Positions 51,599 through 63,554 of a DNA stretch of 64,000 bases are shown piece after piece. Both the position numbers and the translations under genes were made by a program. The notes beneath the pieces were generated by a model. It was not told the origin of the DNA and made no database searches. It saw nothing but the letters and a program-made list of their open reading frames with translations. This DNA is from Acidimicrobiaceae bacterium. GTDB lineage: Bacteria > Actinomycetota > Acidimicrobiia > Acidimicrobiales > RAAP-2. The first letter of the stretch is position 1. Every line of letters begins with the position of its first letter. The stretch spans positions 16,074-80,073 of the forward strand of contig DAHUYG010000038.1 in assembly GCA_027315315.1 (NCBI GenBank), read 5' to 3'.

Positions 51599-52771
51599 TC
51601 AGGACTCCTCGGAGCCGACGTTGTCGTTCGGGCGATGCCCCTCGGTGTGCTCCACGTGGCGCCTGGCGATGATGTGCACGTCAATGCCCGCGTCGGCCGC
51701 CCCTCGCGAGACCTTGCGCACGATCGAACCTCCCCGCAGCAGCTCCTGGAACCGGCCGCGCTGGCTCGATCCGAGCACGATCTGGGTGATCTGGCGCCTC
51801 CTCGCGAAATCGATGATGGCCGTCGCCGGGTCGTCGGATTCGATCTCAGTCCAGTCGGCCCCGACGTCGATGCAGAGCTGTCGCAGCCCATCGAGTGCCG
51901 ACTGGTCCGAACGGCTGCTGTCGTGCAGGTGGATGTGGACGGCGTGCAGGTCCGCCTTGGTGCGCGCCGCCATGCGTGACGCCCGCCGGATGATGGCCTC
52001 GGTGCCGGGGGCCGTGATCACCGCGACCAGGAATCGCTCGCTCGTCTCCCAGAGGACCTGGGTCTGGTACCGGGCGAGATGTTCGAGCAGTTCCTCCTCG
52101 GTCTCGTCGGCGAGGAATCGCAAGGCGAGCTCGCGCAACGCGATCAGGTTGTCGGTGCGAAAGAAGTGACTGAGAGCCTGGGGCACCTTCTCGGGCGGGT
52201 AGATGTTGCCGTGCAGCATGCGGCGGCGGAGCTGCTCGGGCGAGGAGTCGACCAGCTCGATCTGGTCGGCCCGGCGGAGCACCCAGTCCGGCACCCGCTC
52301 GCCGATGGAGACGCCGGTGATGGGCTCGACCGCGTCGGCGATCGACTCGAGGTGCTGGATGTTCACGGTGGTGATGACGTCGATCCCGGCGTCGAGGATC
52401 TGCAGGACGTCCTCCCAGCGCTTGGCGTGGGGGCCCGACCCGGGCACATTCGTGTGCGCCAGCTCGTCGATCAACGCGACGGCGGGATGACGATCGAGCA
52501 CCGCCTGGAGGTCCATCTCCTCGAACCGGGTTCCCCGGTACTCGACCGCCTTGCGGGGGATCACCTCCAGGCCCTTGGTCATGGCCTCGGTCTGGGGGCG
52601 ACCGTGCGATTCGACGAAGCCGATCGCGACGTCGGTCCCCCGGTCGTGGCGCCGAACCCCCTCCGAGAGCATGGCGTAGGTCTTCCCCACGCCGGCGGCC
52701 GACCCGAGATACACCCGGAAGCGCCCGGCCGGCTCGATGTCCTCTTGGTATTCCGTGGCGCGCTCATTCAT
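51599..52771 (-). CDS. KdpD N-terminal half (KdpD sensor + USP domains, no kinase)
   Basis: A 390-aa protein holding only the cytoplasmic front part of KdpD. The KdpD domain has the Walker A-like VYLGSAAGVGKTYAML (residues about 20-35), VALIDELAHTNVPGS (Walker B) and DVITTVNIQHLESI. It is followed by a universal-stress-like domain ending in ITQIVLGSSQRGRFQELLRGGSIVRKV. There are no membrane helices, His box or ATPase domain. The missing half is encoded at 57816-59291. It is the last gene of the leftward kdp operon, overlapping the OB-fold gene by 8 nt, and may regulate the kinase half in trans. Confidence 0.9.
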   Translation of the reverse strand: MNERATEYQEDIEPAGRFRVYLGSAAGVGKTYAMLSEGVRRHDRGTDVAIGFVESHGRPQTEAMTKGLEVIPRKAVEYRGTRFEEMDLQAVLDRHPAVALIDELAHTNVPGSGPHAKRWEDVLQILDAGIDVITTVNIQHLESIADAVEPITGVSIGERVPDWVLRRADQIELVDSSPEQLRRRMLHGNIYPPEKVPQALSHFFRTDNLIALRELALRFLADETEEELLEHLARYQTQVLWETSERFLVAVITAPGTEAIIRRASRMAARTKADLHAVHIHLHDSSRSDQSALDGLRQLCIDVGADWTEIESDDPATAIIDFARRRQITQIVLGSSQRGRFQELLRGGSIVRKVSRGAADAGIDVHIIARRHVEHTEGHRPNDNVGSEES

Positions 52772-53123
52772 CGCCGGTGCCCCCACCCGGCGCTGGCCCG
52801 TCGGGGCCGAGGCGGTAGAGCGGGTTCCAGATCGTGAGTCGGCCGTGGTCCATTCTCGCCGTCCCCTCCACGTGACACCGTGCACCGGACACCAGGCCCG
52901 GCACCCGGTCGCGGCCGAGGAACAGCAAGTCGACTCGCCCGGTGCCGTCGTCGAGGACGCAGCGGAACCCGAGCCCGCTCGGGCCCCCGTCGCCTCGCGA
53001 CCACGGACTCGTCTCGACGATCGTTCCGCCCGCAGTGACCCTGGTTCGCTCGGCGGCCTCCCCGAGGCGGAGCACGAGCCGCATGCCCGGCGTAGGCGGG
53101 TCCGAGGCGATCATCCCGCTCAT
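52764..53123 (-). CDS. OB-fold nucleic-acid-binding-type protein in the kdp operon
   Basis: A 119-aa protein with a predicted OB-fold: RTRVTAGGTIVETSPW, then GFRCVLDDGTGRVDLLFLGRDRVPGLVSGARCHVEGTARMDHGRLTIWNPLYRL, the strand pattern of OB-fold nucleic-acid-binding (tRNA_anti-like) domains. Its ATG overlaps the kdpC stop as ATGA and its stop overlaps kdpD-N. Similar OB-fold genes occur beside Trk potassium genes in other actinobacteria (mycobacterial Rv2694c region, from memory), so a link to potassium uptake is plausible. Its function is unknown. Confidence 0.75.
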   Translation of the reverse strand: MSGMIASDPPTPGMRLVLRLGEAAERTRVTAGGTIVETSPWSRGDGGPSGLGFRCVLDDGTGRVDLLFLGRDRVPGLVSGARCHVEGTARMDHGRLTIWNPLYRLGPDGPAPGGGTGDE

Positions 53124-53743
53124 CGCAACTTGGCCAGCGCCTCGTTCAACTGGAGGACGTCGATATACGCGCTCCCGAGGAACCCCAGCGCGGCACCGTT
53201 GGTCTCTTTGGCGACGAGCTTTCGCAGCCGGGCGGCGGGGATGCCGGTGGCCTTCGAGACCATCGGGACCTGCACGAGGGCGTCCTGGGGCGTGACGTCC
53301 GGATCGAGGCCACTCCCCGAGGTGGTCACGAGATCCGCGGTCGGGTTGACCCCCAGCGCGTGCCAATAGCGCACCAGGGCCTTGGTGTTGTCGTAGAGCG
53401 CCTTGGAGCGCGGCCCGAGGTTCGTCGCCCCGGACTCACCGGAGACGCCGTTGGCCACGAGCGGGTTGTCGCCGCCCGAGGAATGCGTCTTGGCGTTCGC
53501 TGCGTATGGGCCGGTGTCGTCGGGGCGCCCGTGGAAGACGCAGCTGCCCAATGGGTGACCGGGGCACTTGACCGCCGCCCAGTTCTGGCCGATCAGCGTC
53601 GAGCCGTTGGCGGTGATCGACCCGTCCGCCTGGTGCCTGAAGAGCAGCTGGGCGACTCCGGTCCCGGCCAGTGCGTAGACGAACCCGAAGAACACGGTGA
53701 AGGCGAAGATGGCCACGAGCGAACGCCGGAGGTTGATGAGCAT
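53120..53743 (-). CDS. kdpC: Potassium-transporting ATPase subunit KdpC
   Basis: A 207-aa KdpC with one N-terminal membrane helix (LVAIFAFTVFFGFVYALAGTGVAQLLF), then the periplasmic domain with SGSGLDPDVTPQDALVQVP and LGSAYIDVLQLNEAL, the family signatures. KdpC joins KdpB to KdpA in the complex. It starts 12 nt after kdpB and is coupled to the OB-fold gene. Confidence 0.95.
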   Translation of the reverse strand: MLINLRRSLVAIFAFTVFFGFVYALAGTGVAQLLFRHQADGSITANGSTLIGQNWAAVKCPGHPLGSCVFHGRPDDTGPYAANAKTHSSGGDNPLVANGVSGESGATNLGPRSKALYDNTKALVRYWHALGVNPTADLVTTSGSGLDPDVTPQDALVQVPMVSKATGIPAARLRKLVAKETNGAALGFLGSAYIDVLQLNEALAKLR

Positions 53744-53755
53744 GTCGACCCGCGA

Positions 53756-55828
53756 TTAGTAGGCGTGGAGGGCGACCAGGATGAGGTCGATCAGCTTGAT
53801 GAAGATGAAGGGCACGATGATCCCGCCGATGCCGTAGATCCAGACGTTGCGGCGCAGGATCGCAGAGGAGCTCATCGCCCGGAACTTCACCCCTCGGAGC
53901 GCCAGGGGGATCAGCGCGATGATCACGAGCGCATTGAAGATCACTGCGGAGAGCACCGCGCTCTGGGAGTTGTGGAGCTTCATGATGTTGAGGGTGTTGA
54001 GCTGCGGATACGTGGCCACGAACAACGCCGGGATGATGGCGAAGTACTTCGCCACATCGTTGGCGATCGAGAACGTCGTCAGCGAGCCACGCGTGATGAG
54101 CAACTGCTTTCCGATCTCCACGATGTCGATCAGCTTCGTCGGATTCGAATCGAGATCGACCATGTTGCCGGCCTCCTTGGCCGCGGTCGTTCCGGTGTTC
54201 ATCGCCACACCGACGTCGGCCTGGGCGAGCGCCGGCGCGTCGTTCGTGCCGTCGCCGGTCATGGCGATGAGTTTTCCGCCCTTCTGCTCCGAACGGATCA
54301 GTGCCAGCTTGGCCTCGGGCGTCGCCTCGGCCAGGAAGTCGTCGACACCTGCCTCCTGCGCGATCGCAGCAGCCGTCAGGGGATTGTCCCCGGTGATCAT
54401 CACCGTGCGAATCCCCATCGAGCGCATCTCGTCGAACTTCTCGCGGATCCCCTGCTTCACGACGTCCTTCAGCTCGATGACGCCGAGGGTCTCGCTCCCT
54501 TCGGCCACGACCAGGGGCGTCGAACCGGCCCGGGAGATGCCCTCGACGATCTCGTCGAGATCACTCGGCACCTCTCCGCCCTGACCGCGCACCCAGGTTC
54601 TGATCGATTCGGCCGCTCCCTTGCGGATCCGCCGTCCTTCGACGTCGAGACCGGACATGCGGGTCGTCGCGCTGAACGGCACGAACGTGTGCTGCTCGAG
54701 TTGGCGCTCGCGGATGTCGAAGCGCTCCTTGGCCAGGATCACGATGGAACGACCCTCGGGCGTCTCGTCCGCGAGCGAGGCCAACTGGGAGGCGTCGGCG
54801 ACCTCACGCTCCTCGTGGTCAGCGACGGGGACGAAGCGGGTGGCCATGCGGTTTCCGAGGGTGATGGTGCCGGTCTTGTCCAACAGGAGCGTCTGGACGT
54901 CGCCCGCCGCCTCGACGGCTCTCCCGCTCATGGCGAGGACGTTGCGCTGGACCAGGCGGTCCATCCCGGCGATCCCGATGGCGGACAGGAGTGCCCCGAT
55001 GGTCGTCGGGATGAGACAGACCAGGAGCGAGACCAAGACGACCACCGACACCGAAGCACCCGAGTAATGGCCGAAGGCCTGGAGGGTGACCACCACCGGA
55101 ATGAACACGATCGTCAATACCGACAGCAGGATCGTCAAGGCGATCTCGTTCGGCGTCTTCTGCCGGTTGGCCCCCTCGACGAGGGTGATCATCCGGTCTA
55201 GGAAGGTTTGTCCCCTCTCGGCGGTGATCCGCACGACGATCCGGTCCGAGAGCACCTTGGTCCCTCCGGTGACCGCCGAGCGGTCCCCTCCGGACTCCCG
55301 GATCACCGGTGCCGATTCTCCGGTGATCGCGGACTCGTCGACGGACGCGATGCCTTCGACAATCTCGCCATCGGAGGGGATCAGATCGTTCGCTTCACAG
55401 ACCACCAGGTCTCCCCGGGCCAGCGTCGACGCCGGCACGCGCTCCTCGGTGATGCCGTCGGCCCGCAGCCGGCGGGCCTCGGTCTCCGCGCGCATCCGAC
55501 GCAAGGTCTCCGCCTGCGCCTTTCCTCGCCCCTCGGCCATGGCCTCGGCGAAGTTGGCGAAGATCACGGTCAAGAAGAGCCAGATCGTGATCGACCAGGC
55601 GAACTTTCCCGGGTGTGCGACGGCCTCGATGAAGCTCACCACCGTGCCGATGAGTACGACGAACATGACCGGGTTTCTGATCTGGACCCTGGGCGTCAAC
55701 TTCTTGAAGGCGTCGACCAGGGCCTGGCGCATGATCGTCCGGTCGAACAGGCTGCGCCCCTGAGCCACCCCGCGCGCCGCGGGGGTCTCGGGCGCCTCTG
55801 GCTGCAACAGTGCCGGTGCGCTGGACAT
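53756..55828 (-). CDS. kdpB: Potassium-transporting P-type ATPase subunit KdpB
   Basis: A 690-aa P-type ATPase that powers K+ uptake by KdpFABC. The phosphorylation motif is [13 protein letters not shown] (Asp near residue 315), the actuator loop is [19 protein letters not shown], and the hinge is [21 protein letters not shown]. About seven membrane helices are expected. The ATG overlaps the kdpA stop by one base (TGATG). The C-terminus [18 protein letters not shown] is typical. Confidence 0.97.
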
Positions 55829-57522
55829 CAGAAAAACCTCCCGCGGCTCAGTTGCTCGACGATCGGCCCCAGGGAGATGGCCGGGAAGAAGGTCAGCCCT
55901 CCGATGATGATGATGACCCCGATCGTCAGGCCGATGAACATCGTGTTGTCGGTCCGGAACGTGCCGAGCGAGGCCGGGACGACGTGCTTTGCTGCGAGCG
56001 AACCGGCGAGAGCAAGGGCGGGGATGAGGATGCCGAACCGGCCGATCAACATGTCGATCGCGCCGAGCACGTTGTAGAAGGCGGTGTTGCCGGTCAGACC
56101 GGCCATCGCCGAGCCGTTGTTGTTCCCCTGGGACGTGAAGGCGTAGAGGATCTCGGTGAAACCGTGGGGCCCACCGTTCAGTGGTCCGGCCCGCCCGGCG
56201 TGGATCGATACTGCGATGGCTGTGAGGACGAGCACGACGAGCGGCATGACGAGCGCCCCCAGGCCGGCGAGCTTCACCTCCTTGGCCTGGATCTTCTTTC
56301 CGAGGTACTCGGGTGTTCGCCCGATCATCAGTCCGCCGATGAACACGGCGATGATCGCGTAGATCAGGATCGTGTAGAGCCCGCTTCCCACCCCGCCCGG
56401 CGTGACCTCTCCCAGCATCATCCCGGAGAGGGCCCCGAACCCGCCGATCGGGGTGTACGAGTCCGTCGCGCTGTCGACCGCCCCGTCTGAGGTCTGGGTC
56501 ATCGAGACGTTGAACAACGCACTGGTCGGGATCCCGAAACGGACCTCTTTGCCTTCGGTGTTGCCGACACTCGAATGCACCCCGGCCGCCGCGACGGCCG
56601 GGGTGTTCTGGTGCTCGGCATAGGCGGTGAAGCTGACCCAGGCACCGAAAATGATCACCATCGCCGCCAACAAGGCGGCCCCGTGGCGAACGCTCTTCAC
56701 CATCTTGCCGAACGTGTAGGTGAGGGCGAACGGGATCGAGAGTGTGAGCCAGATGTACAGCAGATTGGTGATCGCAGTCGGGTTCTCGAAGGGATGGGCC
56801 AGGTCGGCGTTGAAGAAGCCGCCACCGTTGGTCCCGAACTGCATGATCGAGGCCATGAAGCCGGCCGGCCCCCGGGGGATGGTCTGGGTGACCCCGTTCA
56901 AGGCATCGTGGATGACCACTGGGCCGGCGAGGGTCTGCACGGCTCCCTGTCCGACGACGATGATCCCCGCCACGAAGGCGACCGGCAGCAGGATGTAGAG
57001 CATGCAGCGGGTGATGTCGACCCAGAAGTTCCCGATCGTCGGAGAGCTGCGCCGCGAGAAACCCCTCACGAGGGCGATGGCCGCCGCGATCCCGACCGCC
57101 GCGCTCACGAACTGTTGCACCGTGAGGACGCCGATCTGGGAGAAGTACGACAAGGTCGTCTCGCCGCCGTAGTTCTGCCAGTTCGTGTTCGTGACGAACG
57201 ACACGATGGTGTTGAGGCTCAGAGCCGGCGCAACGGCACCGAAGTGCTGTGGGTTGAGCGGCAGCGATCCCTGGATCCGCAGGAGCAGGTAGCCGAAGGC
57301 GAGGAAGAGGGCCGAGAAGATGACCGTCGAACTCGCGTAGCGCTTCCAGGGCTGCTCGTACTCCTCGGCGGGACCGGTTCGGAGCAGACGGTAGAAGGGC
57401 CGCTCGGCCCAGGCCAAGAACTGCACCCGCCCCTCGAAGACGGCCGCCATGTACGCGCCGAGGTACCGCCAGGTCAACCCCAGCAGGACGATGAGGACGA
57501 CGATGGTCCAGAAGAACCCCAT
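55828..57522 (-). CDS. kdpA: Potassium-transporting ATPase subunit KdpA
   Basis: A 564-aa polytopic channel-like subunit that binds K+. Selectivity-region repeats are visible: [46 protein letters not shown] and [14 protein letters not shown]. The ATG at 57522 overlaps the kdpF stop (TGATG), which fits better than the GTG at 57531 used in the track. kdpB follows with a one-base overlap. Confidence 0.96.
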
Positions 57523-57611
57523 CAGAACCACTCGGGCTTGAACATGGCCACGCCCAAATAGATGACGGTCACGATCGAGACCGCGAGGAGGACCCCTTGC
57601 GCCCAGGTCAC
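57522..57611 (-). CDS. kdpF: KdpF, small membrane subunit
   Basis: A 29-residue peptide with one hydrophobic helix ([17 protein letters not shown]) and the conserved KdpF ending KPEWF, which matches the usual RPExF. It stabilises the KdpABC complex. It is too short for the track. The GTG at 57611 overlaps the stop of an even smaller upstream ORF as GTGA. Confidence 0.85.
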
Positions 57612-57691
57612 ACGCGCTCCAACGCCCAGATGAAGCCGAGCAGGGTCAGGCCGAAGCCGATCACCCCGAGGACAACCAAGAAGTCCGCCAC
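57608..57691 (-). CDS. 27-residue membrane micro-ORF upstream of kdpF
   Basis: From the GTG at 57691 the frame encodes MADFLVVLGVIGFGLTLLGF and then IWALERV. It is a single hydrophobic helix ending in a charged ALER, coupled to kdpF through a GTGA overlap. Such tiny helices are often missed upstream of kdpF in actinobacteria (as I recall). A structural or regulatory role in the Kdp complex is inferred from position only. Confidence 0.55.
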   Translation of the reverse strand: MADFLVVLGVIGFGLTLLGFIWALERV

Positions 57692-57740
57692 ACCCCGATC
57701 CTGTGCACGCCAAAGCTGAACGGGGCCTCAATGCGACCCG

Positions 57741-57761
57741 GAAGGGCTGAATAATTCCTTC
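57741..57761. promoter_or_regulatory. AT-rich dyad in the divergent kdp promoter region
   Basis: GAAGG and CCTTC flank the palindrome GAATAATTC, an AT-rich island between the kdpF operon and the kdpD-C/kdpE operon. It is a good candidate for the KdpE binding site or the shared promoter. No -35 box is clear. Confidence 0.45.
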
Positions 57762-57815
57762 ACGGCCTCGTCGGGACCTTGATCCCGACAGGATGTCGGC
57801 TCCCGGCGCGTGAGA

Positions 57816-59291
57816 ATGAAGCCCATGCGCGCTGGGCTGAGGGGCTCGATCGTGGGCATCTCCACCGCCCTCGGGCTGGGCGCCGCCATGTTGCCGTGGC
57901 GATCGCACCTGGCCATCGCCACGACCGCCCTCGTGCTCGTCGTACCGGTCGTCGCCGGGGTGATCGTTGGGGGATATCCGGGCGGGATCGCGAGCGTCGC
58001 AGCCGGGTTCCTCGTGTACGACTTCGCCTACATCCCGCCCTACAACACGCTGAGCGTCGGTGCAGGTCAGAATTGGGTGGCGCTCGGGGTCTACCTCGTG
58101 GTGATGCTCCTGGTCGCCCAGGTAGCTGCCCACCTCAGATCGGCCCGGGCCGTCGCCCAGCGTCGCGCCGACGAGGCGCTTCGACTCTCAGCCTTGACCC
58201 AACTTCTTGTCGAGGGCGGATCGGTCCAGGAACTGCTCGACACCGTGGTCCGGGCGATAGCCACCGTCTTCGAGGTCGAATCGGTGGCGCTGCTCCTACC
58301 GGAGGAGGGCAAGCTGCTGGTTGCCGCTTCCGCCGGGACTCCCCTCGAGGACTCCGATCTCGCACGAGTGGCATCCGGCTCCGGACTCCCGGTGGCGGTC
58401 GGCACCCTTCGCCCCGGCTCCGATTCCTTGCAGACGCTCGCCCTGGATGCATCGGAGGGTCCCGTGGGGATCCTCGCCCTGCGGGGCCTCCCGGCATCCT
58501 TCCGCGATGGTGCACTCCTTCGGACCTTTGCCAACCACGCCGCGCTCGCCCTCGAGAAGGTGCAGCTCCGGGCGAGGGCCGAACGCACCCTGCTGCTCGA
58601 GGAGATGGACCGTATCCGGAAGGACCTAATCGGTGCGGTGTCCCATGACCTCCGCACCCCGCTTGCCACGATGAAGGTCGCCTCGTCCTCGCTTCTCGAT
58701 CCGACGGCCAAGCTCTCCGCGCAAGACATCGCGGAACTCCATGGCCTCATCGACGCGCAGGTCGATCGCCTGACCCGACTCGTCACGAGCCTCTTAGACC
58801 TCAACCGCTACGAACACGGCGCGCTCACACTCGAACGCCATACGCGTGGCGTCCTCGATCTCATCGGAGATGCCCTGGCAGACATGCGCCCGACACTCGG
58901 GGACCGCTCGATCGTCCTCGACGTTCCCTCGGCGCTTCCCGACGTCGACGTCGACCCGGTGCTCATCGGTCAGGTGCTAGCCAACCTGCTCGACAACGCC
59001 GAGTGCCATTCGCCCCCACGAGCGCCCATTCGGATCGCGGCCGAATGGCTGGACGGCTGCGTCGCGATCTCGATCAGTGACAGCGGCCCCGGGGTCCCGA
59101 ACGCGCAACGTGACACCATCTTCGGCAGCTTCGTCCGGTTCGACACCGGTGGCCGGGCAGGCCTGGGGCTCGCCATCGTCAAGGCCTTCGTGCAAGCCCA
59201 CGGCGAGCGAGTCTGGGTAGACGACGCCGTCGGCGGGGGTGCCCGCTTCGTCTTCACGATGCCCCCCCACCCCGTGGGAGGCCCGCTCTGA
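57816..59291 (+). CDS. KdpD C-terminal half: membrane sensor histidine kinase
   Basis: A 491-aa sensor kinase. The N-terminal four-helix DUF4118 membrane domain, typical of KdpD, includes VYDFAYIPPYNTLSV (near residue 70). It is followed by a GAF-like domain (about 125-265), then the HisKA box AVSHDLRTPLATMKVASSS with the phospho-His, and the HATPase domain (NLLDNAECHS; ISDSGPGVP; GLGLAIVKAFV). The cytoplasmic KdpD/USP part is absent and is encoded at 51599-52771. The start may be the GTG at 57810 or the ATG at 57816. It is coupled to kdpE by a TGATG overlap. Confidence 0.9.
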   Translation: MKPMRAGLRGSIVGISTALGLGAAMLPWRSHLAIATTALVLVVPVVAGVIVGGYPGGIASVAAGFLVYDFAYIPPYNTLSVGAGQNWVALGVYLVVMLLVAQVAAHLRSARAVAQRRADEALRLSALTQLLVEGGSVQELLDTVVRAIATVFEVESVALLLPEEGKLLVAASAGTPLEDSDLARVASGSGLPVAVGTLRPGSDSLQTLALDASEGPVGILALRGLPASFRDGALLRTFANHAALALEKVQLRARAERTLLLEEMDRIRKDLIGAVSHDLRTPLATMKVASSSLLDPTAKLSAQDIAELHGLIDAQVDRLTRLVTSLLDLNRYEHGALTLERHTRGVLDLIGDALADMRPTLGDRSIVLDVPSALPDVDVDPVLIGQVLANLLDNAECHSPPRAPIRIAAEWLDGCVAISISDSGPGVPNAQRDTIFGSFVRFDTGGRAGLGLAIVKAFVQAHGERVWVDDAVGGGARFVFTMPPHPVGGPL

Positions 59292-59977
59292 TGGCCAAGA
59301 TCCTCGTCATCGACGACGATCCCTCGCTCCTCCGGGCGTTGCGCCTGGGCCTGCAGGCCGGCGGCCACCAGGTGCTCACGGCATCGAACGGTGAGCAGGG
59401 GGTGACGACTACGGCGACCTCCGCCCCCGACGTGGTGATCTTGGACCTCGGGCTCCCCGATATCGAGGGACTCGAGGTGTGTCGGCGGATCCGCCAGTGG
59501 AGCGACGTGCCGATCGTCGTCCTGTCCGCCACCGAAGCCGAGGACCGCAAGGTCGCCGCACTCGACGGGGGCGCAAACGACTACGTCACCAAGCCCTTCG
59601 GCATGGCCGAGCTCGAGGCCCGGATCCGGGTCGCGCTGCGGAGGAAGGGGGCCGACGCAGAATCCCTCGAGGAACCGGTGATGACCGTCGGGGGCCTGAC
59701 CCTCGATCCGGTGCGCCGCGATGCCAGGCTCGAAGGGCGACCGGTCGACCTGACCGCCAAAGAGTTCGACGTGCTCGCCTTCCTGGCCCGGCACGCCGGC
59801 AAACGGTGCACGCACGAGATGATCCTCTCGGCAGTCTGGGGACCCGGGTACGGGCGCGAGTCCCAGTACCTGCATGCCTACATCCACCGCCTGCGCCAGA
59901 AGCTCAATGACCCAGATGCCCAGCTCATCCGTACCGCACCGGGGATCGGCTATGTGCTCGACGCCGGCGGGAGCTGA
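59291..59977 (+). CDS. kdpE: Response regulator KdpE
   Basis: A 228-aa OmpR-family regulator. The receiver domain has the acidic pocket VIDDDPS, the phospho-Asp in VVILDLGLPDIEG, and the Lys in DYVTKPFG. The DNA-binding winged helix has LTAKEFDVLAFLARHAGKRCTHEMIL and YLHAYIHRLRQKL. It should activate the divergent kdp operon. The ATG overlaps the kinase stop (TGATG). Confidence 0.94.
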   Translation: MAKILVIDDDPSLLRALRLGLQAGGHQVLTASNGEQGVTTTATSAPDVVILDLGLPDIEGLEVCRRIRQWSDVPIVVLSATEAEDRKVAALDGGANDYVTKPFGMAELEARIRVALRRKGADAESLEEPVMTVGGLTLDPVRRDARLEGRPVDLTAKEFDVLAFLARHAGKRCTHEMILSAVWGPGYGRESQYLHAYIHRLRQKLNDPDAQLIRTAPGIGYVLDAGGS

Positions 59978-60018: not shown

Positions 60019-60564
60019 ATGACCGCTACTTCGACCTCGCTCCTCGCGGCATTCGATTACGTCTGGGGGCGGTTGATGCACCGGATCGAGGGCCTCACAG
60101 ACGAGGAGTACCGCTGGGAGCCAGTCGCTGCATGCTGGTCCCTCCGGCAGGACGACAGTGGGGCGTGGCGGATCGAAGGCTCGGTTGGCGACACCAGTTC
60201 ACCGATGCCGACGCCGGTGACGACGATCGCCTGGCGTCTCGGGCACCTGGCCGGAGTGGCGCTCGGAGGCTTCGCGGATCGATGGTTCGGTTCGGGCACG
60301 CTTCGGATCGAGGACATCGAATTCCCGGGGGCGGCCGCCGGTGTGCCTTCGTTCTGCGAGGAGAACTATCGCCGGTGGCGCGAAGGAATCGCATCGATCG
60401 AGGAGGGTCAGTGGTGGGAACCCCTCGGGGCGAGCTGGGGCATCTGGGCCGAGGCGAACCACGTGGACCTTGCCATCCACGTCTTCGACGAGGTCGTGCA
60501 CCACGGTGCAGAGGTTGGGTTGCTGCGGGACCTCTACCCTCGCCGTGCCGAGGTTCGGTGCTAG
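60019..60564 (+). CDS. DinB-superfamily protein
   Basis: A 181-aa four-helix protein of the DinB type, with possible metal ligands in TIAWRLGHLAGVALGGFADRWFG (near residue 78), in NHVDLAIHVFDEVVHHGAEVGLLRDL, and a W-rich RWEP segment early on. The function is unknown. Its TAG stop lies within the CTAG repeat that borders the IS1182-type element, so the insertion touches the end of the gene without changing the protein. Confidence 0.7.
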   Translation: MTATSTSLLAAFDYVWGRLMHRIEGLTDEEYRWEPVAACWSLRQDDSGAWRIEGSVGDTSSPMPTPVTTIAWRLGHLAGVALGGFADRWFGSGTLRIEDIEFPGAAAGVPSFCEENYRRWREGIASIEEGQWWEPLGASWGIWAEANHVDLAIHVFDEVVHHGAEVGLLRDLYPRRAEVRC

Positions 60565-62260
60565 GGCGCTGTTGAACAAGGCTCTTCCCCGCCGGGGAGG
60601 AGGCGGCGTAGCGTGCTGGTGGGTCCTCGGGGATGAGCCCGCACCGAAGAGCCGGAGTTGAGGGGGAAGATCCGGTCGCGCTGGATTTGGCCTCGGGCCA
60701 ACAGGTGTCGTGCCCTCCTTGGGACGTCCCCGAGGACCCCTATGGGGCCGGCGAGCACCCAGTTGCCGTCGGTTCTGGTGAGCCCGAGCACGACCAGCCT
60801 GCGCAAGTTGAGGGCGGCGACGCGCCGGTGCGCCCAGGCCACATTGCGTTCGACGCCGCGATAGCGAAGCCGGCGCTTGCCCTTGGCCACCAGCCAGGAG
60901 ATCGACCGCTCGGCCATCGGGCGGTGCTGTCGATAGACGGCCCGCAGCTCGTCCTCGCTCCAGGCCGCTCGGGCCTCGACCAGCTCGGCGTCGTGTGCAG
61001 AGACGCTGAAGGAGCGGGCCCTCGCCTTGGTGCAGCGGGACCGCATCGGACAGGGGCCACAGTGGGGTGCGAACCTGGCCACGCAGGCGCTCGAGAGCTT
61101 GGCGGTGTGACCGGCCGGGCAGGTGACGACGCCCTGGTCGTGGTCGACCACGAAGTCGTCTCGCACGAACCCCCCGGGGATGACCGGGCGGCTGGGCAGC
61201 GGCTTGATGACCAGGCGGTGGTGCCGCCGCTTCAAGCCTGCCCGCACCGCTCCGGACCCGTAGGCCGAGTCGGCCAGGACCTCGAGGCCATCGGGCTCGG
61301 CGGCCATGAGCTCGACCCCGACCGGCCCATCGGGGGCATTGGCCGCGGTGAGCTTGAGCGCTGTGATGATCCCGCTCTCGGGCTCGGTGGCCAGGTGGGC
61401 CTTGAAGCCGTCGGTGCGCACGGGGCGGTGGACTTGTGGCCGTGGCGAGCCTCGACGTCGACCGTCGAGATGACCCGGTCCTTGGCCATCTTGCGGGCGA
61501 TCCTCCAGGTGCCCTCTCTCAGTAGGTTCGACGTCCCGGCCGGCGATCAAGGCCAGAAGGCCGATGGAGTCGGCGGCCATCTCGGCCGAGGGGCTCGTCT
61601 CGGCCGCCGCCAGCACCGCCTCGGCGTCGTGGACCAGCCCGGTGACCAGTTCGTTCCTGGCCACGGTGTCGGACCACTCGATGATGGGCTTGCCCCCTCG
61701 TCGCTGGCGGTCGAGAGCTCGACCAGGGCCGCCTCGGGCACCGCTCCTCGCACCTTGCGGATGGCCGCGACGAGCTGGGTGACGGTGTCCTGGGTGGCCA
61801 CCGCGTCGTCCAAGATGCTCGAGTCGAGGGCCCGCCGGTGCTTGCCAACGAGCACCCCGGTGGCGGCGACCACGGCCGCACCGCGTCGAAGATCCGCTGG
61901 GGCCGCTCGGAGTTGGGCAGTCGGCTCCGCCAATAGGTGAGGACGGTGAAGTCGAAGCCCTCATCGTCGAGGGCCAGGCCGCAGGCGACCTTCCAGTCGA
62001 TCCGGGTCCGCAGCGCTCAGATGGCGTCGCGATCGGACAGGCCTTCCAAGGCCTGGAGCACCATGACCGGGCAGACCACCGGCGCCGGGGTGGAGGGGGC
62101 GTCCCCTCTCGGAGGGGAACAGGTCGGCGAAGTCCTCGTCTATGAAGAGCTCTTCTCGGTGATCGGCCAAGAAGGCGTAGACGGTCCCCTCTTCGATCAG
62201 CCCCCGGCACAGGGCCGCGGCATCGAGGAGGTGGCGGTCGGGATCGGCTTTGCCTTGCAT
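60561..62260 (-). pseudogene. IS1182-family transposase, frameshifted
   Basis: The protein is readable only across several frames. The N-terminal GKADPDRHLLDAAALCRGLIEEGTVYAFLADHREELF is in one frame. Middle pieces include ALDSSILDDAVATQDTVTQLVAAIRKVRGAVPE and SDTVARNELVTGLVHDAEAVLAA. The C-terminal part from DGFKAHLATEPESGIITALKLTAANAPDG to NVAWAHRRVAALNLRRLVVL is intact. Visible DDE residues are in TVDVEARHGH, GLEVLADSAYGSG and HRPMAERSISWL. The terminal TAG is supplied by the CTAG target repeat at the element edge. Confidence 0.85.
60565..60575 (+). repeat. Left terminal inverted repeat of the IS1182-type element
   Basis: GGCGCTGTTGA directly follows the CTAG copy at 60561-60564 and matches the inverse of the right end exactly. 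Confidence 0.85.
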
Positions 62261-62312
62261 GGCCAATTCTCGCCCGCTGGCTGGCAAATCGCGAGCCTTT
62301 CGGCGCTTCAAA

Positions 62313-62323
62313 TCAACAGCGCC
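62313..62323 (-). repeat. Right terminal inverted repeat of the IS1182-type element
   Basis: TCAACAGCGCC, the exact inverse of the left end, is followed directly by CTAG (62324-62327). That CTAG also contains the TA target and first base of the adjoining IS630 element. Confidence 0.85.
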
Positions 62324-62326
62324 CTA

Positions 62327-63554
62327 GTGTCCTGGAAGCTGATCCACTGTGAAATGCCGTTCACCCGTCGGCGTTGATGGCGGCGCAGTATCCAGCGAGG
62401 CGTTCGAGGATCTGCTCGGCCGTCTTCGTCCAGACGAATGGACGCGGGTTCTCGTTCCAGGTGGTGACCCAGGCGAGGATGTCGGCAGCGAGTTCTTTCA
62501 CGTTGCGATGGGCGGAGCGCTTGAGCTTCTTGGTCGTGAGGGCGGAGAACCAGCGCTCAACGAGGTTCATCCACGACCCATAGGTGGGAGTGAAGTGGAA
62601 GTGGAACCGTCGATGCCGCAACAGCCAGCGGTGCACGAGCGGGGTCTTGTGGGTGGCGAGGTTGTCCAAGATCGCATGCACGTCGAGCTCGGCGGGCACC
62701 TCACGGTTGAGCTTGTTCAAGAAAGCCACGAAGTCGCCGCTGGTGTGGGACTTGCGAATGTCGGTGATCACCGTCCCGGTGGCCACCTCCAGTGCCGCGA
62801 AGAGATCACAGGTGCCGTTGCGTTCGTAGTCATGGGTGGCCCGAGCCGGGGTGGTGGGCAGCATGGGCAACGTCGGGACGATGCGGTTGATGGCCTCAAT
62901 CTGGGGCTTCTCGTCGACCGCGAAGACCGCCGCGGCAACCGGAGGGCTCATGTAGAGCCCGACGAGATCACGGATCTTCTCCACGAGGTCCGGGTCCGGC
63001 GACACCTTGAAGCTGTCTTCGCGCCAGGGCTTGAGCCCGAAGGCCCGCCAGATCTCACGCACCGTCGTGTGGCTGATCCCGTGGCGCTTGGCCAGGGACC
63101 TCGTCGACCAGTGGGTTGCGTCCTCGGGAGCACTTTCGAGCGTCTCGACCACGATCGCCTTGATCACGTCGTCGCCGATGGTGCGGGCCGCTCCCGGGCG
63201 AGGAGCGTCGACCAGCCCGTCGAGCCGGGCGGCCCCGAAACGCTGACGCCACTTACCCACCGTCACCGGGTTGCAACCCAGCTCGGCTGCGATCTCGGCG
63301 TGGGTCGCGTCCCCCGCCGCGCAGGCCAGCACGATATTGGAGCGAAAGGCCAACGCCTGCGACGAGGAGTCCCGGCGTGCCCAGCGCTCCAGGGTAGAGC
63401 GCTCCTCGGCGCTCAAGATGATCTCGACGGTCGGTCGTCCGCGACGTGCCATGGTCTCCCTCCGATGTTGGCGTACAACACCGGAGGAACGCGCCTCGAA
63501 CGCAACAATTCCCGCTCAGCGGAGATTTATCCGCGAATCAGCCTTCCAGGACAC
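62327..63554. mobile_element. IS630-family insertion sequence, apparently intact
   Basis: The ends are inverted repeats starting GTGTCCTGGAAG (62327 onwards, and the reverse complement CTTCCAGGACAC ending at 63554), flanked by the TA duplication typical of this family (62325-62326 and 63555-63556). It is about 1.23 kb with one complete transposase gene. It directly abuts the IS1182-type element. Confidence 0.88.
62361..63452 (-). CDS. IS630-family transposase
   Basis: A 363-aa DDE transposase. Two N-terminal helix-turn-helix regions (HAEIAAELGCNPVTVGKWRQRFG and SLAKRHGISHTTVREIWRAFGL) are followed by the catalytic domain. The three acidic residues are visible in AVFAVDEKPQIEA, VHAILDNLATHKTP and PTYGSWMNLVERWFSALT. 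No stop or frameshift interrupts it and both terminal repeats are present, so the element could still be mobile. Confidence 0.93.
   Translation of the reverse strand: MARRGRPTVEIILSAEERSTLERWARRDSSSQALAFRSNIVLACAAGDATHAEIAAELGCNPVTVGKWRQRFGAARLDGLVDAPRPGAARTIGDDVIKAIVVETLESAPEDATHWSTRSLAKRHGISHTTVREIWRAFGLKPWREDSFKVSPDPDLVEKIRDLVGLYMSPPVAAAVFAVDEKPQIEAINRIVPTLPMLPTTPARATHDYERNGTCDLFAALEVATGTVITDIRKSHTSGDFVAFLNKLNREVPAELDVHAILDNLATHKTPLVHRWLLRHRRFHFHFTPTYGSWMNLVERWFSALTTKKLKRSAHRNVKELAADILAWVTTWNENPRPFVWTKTAEQILERLAGYCAAINADG

What the first reader, a model, noticed from the sequence alone, without database searches (positions are those of the whole stretch)
51599..59977. KdpD split into two genes at opposite ends of a divergent kdp locus
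The cytoplasmic KdpD+USP part (51599-52771) has no kinase, and the DUF4118-GAF-HisKA-HATPase part (57816-59291) has no KdpD/USP domain. They belong to two divergent operons, one ending with the sensor module and one starting with the kinase. Normal KdpD joins them in one chain. The arrangement implies control in trans, with the K+/nucleotide-sensing half made with the transporter and the kinase made with KdpE, which could give feedback from transporter level to kinase. A GAF domain in place of the sensor front half is also notable.
Basis: partly seen in the sequence, partly recalled or inferred. Interest (0 to 1): 0.72.

Follow-up and report, generated by a model that had tools for sequence, protein, structure and literature searches.

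The report
Two-gene KdpD in a potassium-pump locus
The potassium sensor KdpD is really made here as two separate proteins, an arrangement already described in Deinococcus, cyanobacteria and Alicyclobacillus; the free front half is most likely a switch that shuts off the potassium pump, and a small unrecognised gene beside it looks like the newer find.

Summary
The halves match NCBI's KdpD model as residues 20-387 and 399-882, a clean cut between Usp and membrane part. No other KdpD lies in the genome. It is not an artefact: close relatives share it, and on a tree short and full-length KdpD separate by one change.

It is not new. The same split on two divergent operons is published for D. radiodurans and, by title, Alicyclobacillus. 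More likely KdpD-N is an atypical serine kinase that phosphorylates the TGES serine of KdpB, as shown in 2024 for E. coli KdpD and, on E. coli KdpB, for the short D. geothermalis protein; most catalytic motifs and the target serine are intact here. The GAF domain is the ordinary KdpD one.

Two points go further. Seven of seven genomes sampled from this genus have short KdpD but no detectable c-di-AMP synthase, so its signal is open. The OB-fold gene follows kdpC only at short-KdpD loci (42/74 versus 0/34); its relatives sit with or inside KimA-like K+ permeases.

The parts
51599..52771 (-). kdpD-N: KdpD (P-loop, atypical serine kinase type) plus Usp domain, no histidine kinase
   Evidence: PF02702 1.4e-91, PF00582 4.2e-9; Walker A G23-x5-GKT31, Walker B D102-E103 and R184 intact and near-invariant in 182 relative sequences (not deduplicated), E. 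coli W39 position is Y32
52764..53123 (-). small OB-fold protein (119 aa), ATGA overlap with the kdpC stop and 8-bp overlap with the kdpD-N start
   Evidence: translation; weak OB-fold Pfam match, 25 of 30 members; AlphaFold pLDDT 87.7, Foldseek hits to RPA/OB domains
53120..53743 (-). kdpC
   Evidence: PF02669 2.5e-43
53756..55828 (-). kdpB; TGES motif at residues 169-172, Ser172 = E. coli Ser162
   Evidence: TIGR01497 1049 bits; motif; SAITGES found in 62 of 66 relative KdpB sequences searched
55828..57531 (-). kdpA
   Evidence: PF03814 5.5e-212
57522..57611 (-). kdpF (29 aa)
   Evidence: PF09604 6e-7
57716..57731 (+). candidate response-regulator operator: 11-bp-spaced direct repeat CTGAA-N6-CTCAA in the divergent intergenic region
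   Evidence: found in all 8 divergent intergenic regions compared; 10 of 54 kdpA-upstream regions against 0.39 expected, but the pattern was defined post hoc
57810..59291 (+). KdpD C-terminal half: DUF4118-GAF-HisKA-HATPase histidine kinase, phospho-acceptor His279 (SHDLRTPL)
59291..59977 (+). kdpE response regulator
   Evidence: Response_reg + Trans_reg_C; best NCBIfam match is KdpE, below that family's cut-off

Best explanation
This is a split-KdpD kdp locus of a known type. The membrane protein (DUF4118-GAF-histidine kinase) most likely senses low K+ and phosphorylates KdpE, which turns on the divergent operons from the shared intergenic region (inferred from domains, gene order and published KdpDE work). 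The free KdpD+Usp protein is most likely an atypical serine kinase made with its own substrate: when K+ is plentiful it uses ATP (Walker A/B) to phosphorylate Ser172 of the KdpB TGES loop and stops the pump (shown biochemically in E. coli and with the short D. geothermalis KdpD on E. coli KdpB; inferred here from conserved motifs). What switches it on in this genus is unknown: no c-di-AMP synthase was found and the Usp lacks the described c-di-AMP motif. The neighbouring OB-fold protein is a candidate for part of that input (speculative).
For: Complementary halves of one KdpD model. Serine-kinase site: G23-x5-G29K30T31, D102-E103 and R184 (E. coli Walker A, D109/E110, R190), near-invariant in 182 relative sequences (the E. 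coli numbering was matched by eye). KdpB TGES serine present. Published mechanism, including separate-chain species (PMC11018627) and the same gene layout in D. radiodurans with the response regulator required for kdp expression (PMC5716572). kdpD-N lies in the pump operon with overlapping genes. Short-type KdpD is a coherent lineage, one label change on the tree against about 40 in shuffles (quick tree).
Against: No experiment in this lineage. The adenine-stacking W39 of E. coli is Tyr32 here. Score on NCBI's non-kinase KdpD family is 377 bits against a cut-off of 550. The c-di-AMP input shown for D. geothermalis is unlikely here, so regulation must differ in at least one step. An added or alternative role acting on the histidine kinase is not excluded.
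Confidence: 0.72

Rival explanations
1. One reading: KdpD-N binds the separate histidine kinase and controls it in trans, rebuilding a normal KdpD from two chains, with feedback from transporter level.
For: The two proteins are complementary halves of KdpD and occur together at many loci. In E. coli ATP binding to the KdpD domain has been linked to phosphatase control (PMC11018627), and in S. [quoted passage not shown]
Against: Direct published activity of the domain is on KdpB, also when separate. In 30 of 74 split loci kdpD-N does not follow kdpC, so co-production with the transporter is not a fixed feature. Forms lacking histidine-kinase domains occur mainly in species without KdpE, so the N-part has a role of its own. 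A complex prediction could not be run.
Confidence: 0.12
2. Both at once: KdpD-N phosphorylates KdpB and also docks on the histidine kinase.
For: Full-length KdpD does both jobs in one chain (PMC11018627).
Against: No evidence of docking. The loss of covalent linkage looks old and stable in this order.
Confidence: 0.15
3. Sequencing or assembly artefact, or a recently broken kdpD.
For: The genome is a draft of 68 contigs.
Against: The halves lie 5 kb apart on opposite strands with the pump between them; the same layout is complete in two same-genus genomes (L145, L147); short and full KdpD form separate sides of the tree.
Confidence: 0.01

Closest known systems
Deinococcus radiodurans kdp locus (DR_B0081-B0088; PMC5716572)
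   Same: kdpD-N at the end of the pump operon; sensor kinase and response regulator in a divergent operon immediately upstream
   Different: Pump order B-A-C there; no OB-fold gene annotated between kdpC and kdpD-N in the Deinococcus locus checked (Deinococcus sp. AJ005, L182)
Alicyclobacillus acidocaldarius split kdpD in two divergent kdp operons (Schleussinger et al. 2006, known here by title only, as reference 55 of PMC11018627)
   Same: Title describes the same arrangement
   Different: Different phylum; the paper is not in the held library, so its details were not checked
D. geothermalis short KdpD, c-di-AMP-stimulated atypical serine kinase (PMC11018627)
   Same: KdpD+Usp only
   Different: This genus has no detectable diadenylate cyclase and its Usp lacks the described c-di-AMP motif; the D. 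geothermalis sequence itself was not fetched
E. coli KdpD
   Same: Same domains overall, GAF included
   Different: One chain there, two here

Membership tests
Split-KdpD kdp system (D. radiodurans/Alicyclobacillus type) | KdpD+Usp protein without histidine-kinase domains | tested here: met
Split-KdpD kdp system (D. radiodurans/Alicyclobacillus type) | Separate TM-GAF-HisKA-HATPase kinase next to a KdpE-type regulator | tested here: met
Split-KdpD kdp system (D. radiodurans/Alicyclobacillus type) | Two divergent operons, kdpD-N with the pump, kinase with the regulator | tested here: met
   Deinococcus comparison
Split-KdpD kdp system (D. radiodurans/Alicyclobacillus type) | No full-length KdpD elsewhere | tested here: met
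   one PF02702 hit in a 92% complete genome
KdpD atypical serine kinase | Walker A G-x5-GKT, Walker B DE, adenine-site Trp and Arg | tested here: inconclusive
   Walker A, DE and Arg met; Trp39 is Tyr here and the position varies in relatives
KdpD atypical serine kinase | Substrate serine in the KdpB TGES loop | tested here: met
   TGES 169-172, 62 of 66 relatives
KdpD atypical serine kinase | Phosphorylates KdpB | not testable with these tools
   needs biochemistry
NCBIfam NF038185 KdpD-like non-kinase potassium sensor | Score at or above the curated cut-off of 550 bits | tested here: not met
   best NCBIfam hit, but 377 bits
c-di-AMP-gated KdpD | (A/G/C)xSxSx2N...(Y/F) motif in Usp (S. aureus A242, S244, S246, N249, Y271) | tested here: not met
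   1 of 5 positions (A; then I, A, T, H) (motif from PMC8214093); the motif was derived in Firmicutes
c-di-AMP-gated KdpD | Diadenylate cyclase in the genome | tested here: not met
   no PF02457 in own genome nor in any of 7 same-genus genomes, own included

The most novel reading that the evidence does not exclude
In these Acidimicrobiales without c-di-AMP synthase, K+ import is governed by an undescribed OB-fold module shared by unrelated importers: a free protein in the split-KdpD kdp operon, and a C-terminal domain of, or neighbour to, KimA-like permeases. It would feed the K+ or nucleotide signal to KdpD-N and the pump in place of c-di-AMP.
Probability: 0.2. Interest if true: 0.65.

Novelty: new member of a known kind. 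Interest (0 to 1): 0.33.

Why it matters
The split itself extends a published arrangement to a little-studied actinobacterial order and shows it there as an old, stable lineage of KdpD. The value lies in what does not fit the 2024 model: a genus with short KdpD but no c-di-AMP synthase is a natural test of how the free serine kinase senses K+. The OB-fold gene tied to short KdpD and to KimA permeases is a concrete candidate for a missing K+-import regulator.

Tried and rejected
Recent gene breakage or assembly error: rejected by synteny and tree. A hidden full-length KdpD: none. A c-di-AMP riboswitch or other Rfam element in 45-64 kb: none at gathering threshold. Sigma-70 promoters: none by consensus. 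Usp motif differing between relatives with and without c-di-AMP synthase: no evident difference by eye, the Acidimicrobiales Usp loops mostly lack the Firmicutes motif in both, so the motif does not track the enzyme. The OB gene's presence does not obviously track the enzyme either. The careful maximum-likelihood tree did not finish, so the quick tree is reported.

Full report
What is there. On the - strand from 57611 down to 51599 lie kdpF, kdpA, kdpB, kdpC, a 119-aa OB-fold gene and kdpD-N; on the + strand from 57810 lie a histidine kinase and kdpE. The genes of the pump operon lie close or overlap: the kdpC stop overlaps the OB start (ATGA), and the OB gene overlaps the kdpD-N start by 8 bases. 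The two KdpD parts map to positions 20-387 and 399-882 of NCBI's 895-position KdpD model, so the cut lies between the Usp domain and the first membrane segment. The GAF domain belongs to the C-terminal half of ordinary KdpD as well (PMC11018627). It holds no other PF02702 match.

Is it real and how common. Eighty loci encoding relatives came from a scan of named genomes, mostly Acidimicrobiales, and 37 more stretches were fetched by genome handle (some repeat the same contigs). Many show a short KdpD with a separate DUF4118-type kinase and KdpE nearby. Two genomes of the same genus (L145, L147) have the identical layout. The position of the kinase-regulator pair varies: divergent from kdpF/A as here, upstream on the same strand, or divergent from kdpD-N. 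Among 74 distinct short-KdpD loci, kdpD-N follows kdpC in 44 and lies elsewhere in 30. A tree of 150 KdpD domains puts 103 short and 47 full-length proteins on two sides of one branch (SH-aLRT 93, quick tree), with about 40 changes expected in shuffles. Long branches of Deinococcus and cyanobacterial rows make their place unsure.

How it most likely works. PMC11018627 showed that the KdpD domain of E. coli is an atypical serine kinase that phosphorylates KdpB Ser162, that the short D. geothermalis protein does so on E. coli KdpB, and that c-di-AMP stimulates the latter. It also recorded species with the two activities on separate chains. Here Walker A, the Walker B DE pair and the adenine-site Arg are conserved, while the adenine-site Trp is Tyr; KdpB carries TGES at 169-172, as do 62 of 66 relatives in which the site was sought. 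I therefore read kdpD-N as a post-translational off switch made with its target, and the membrane kinase with KdpE as the transcriptional on switch. All of this is inference for this organism. A role of kdpD-N on the histidine kinase remains possible.

The signal. No diadenylate cyclase (PF02457) was found in this genome or in any of the 7 genomes of its genus in the family sample, own included, at 87-95% completeness, all of which carry a short KdpD. Several other genera of the family do have it, so absence is lineage-specific. The Usp matches only one of five c-di-AMP-binding positions from PMC8214093. That motif was defined in Firmicutes, and most Acidimicrobiales Usp loops lack it whether or not the enzyme is present, so the motif alone proves little. 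Together they make c-di-AMP gating unlikely here.

The OB-fold gene. AlphaFold gives a confident beta-barrel (pLDDT 87.7) and Foldseek finds OB domains of RPA and related proteins. Directly after kdpC it occurs in 42 of 74 short-KdpD loci and 0 of 34 full-length loci; the rows share ancestry, so this is an association, not an independent count. In this genome the other strong relative is the C-terminal domain of an 836-aa protein matching the K+ transporter KimA (phmmer 2.3e-95 to 6s3k); a weak third match has the length and score that RecG would give, not checked. Twenty further stretches fetched around order-level hits, chosen mostly as free-standing copies, all have a KimA-like permease nearby, and in the one examined an ORF with TrkA domains lies between. 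No paper combining these terms was found in the held library. Its role is unknown.

Verdict. The open leads are the missing c-di-AMP synthase and the OB-fold module.

Noticed in passing
window 52764-53123 (-): Unannotated OB-fold gene in the kdp operon, seen after kdpC only at short-KdpD loci; relatives are fused to or beside KimA-like K+ permeases (L187:6227-8737, L218-L237).
   Followed up: partly
window, - strand, about 57608-57690: A 27-residue single-membrane-span peptide ([27 protein letters not shown]) overlaps the kdpF start; a similar peptide ending in (E/D)(R/K)(V/L/I) lies upstream of kdpA in most relative loci. No significant Pfam match.
   Followed up: partly
window 57716-57758: Direct repeat CTGAA-N6-CTCAA and a conserved CTGAATAATTCC in the divergent intergenic region: candidate KdpE operator and promoter.
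   Followed up: partly
G000 and 6 other genomes of the genus: No diadenylate cyclase (PF02457) although short KdpD with Usp, and in G000 a KimA-like permease, are present.
   Followed up: partly
window 60561-63452 (-): ORFs that look like two transposases, judged by eye from the translations, lie just beyond kdpE and a DinB-like gene.
   Followed up: no
L127, L135, L136, L140, L143: In these full-length-KdpD loci kdpC and kdpD are 0.8-1.1 kb apart instead of about 30-90 bp; what lies between was not examined.
   Followed up: no
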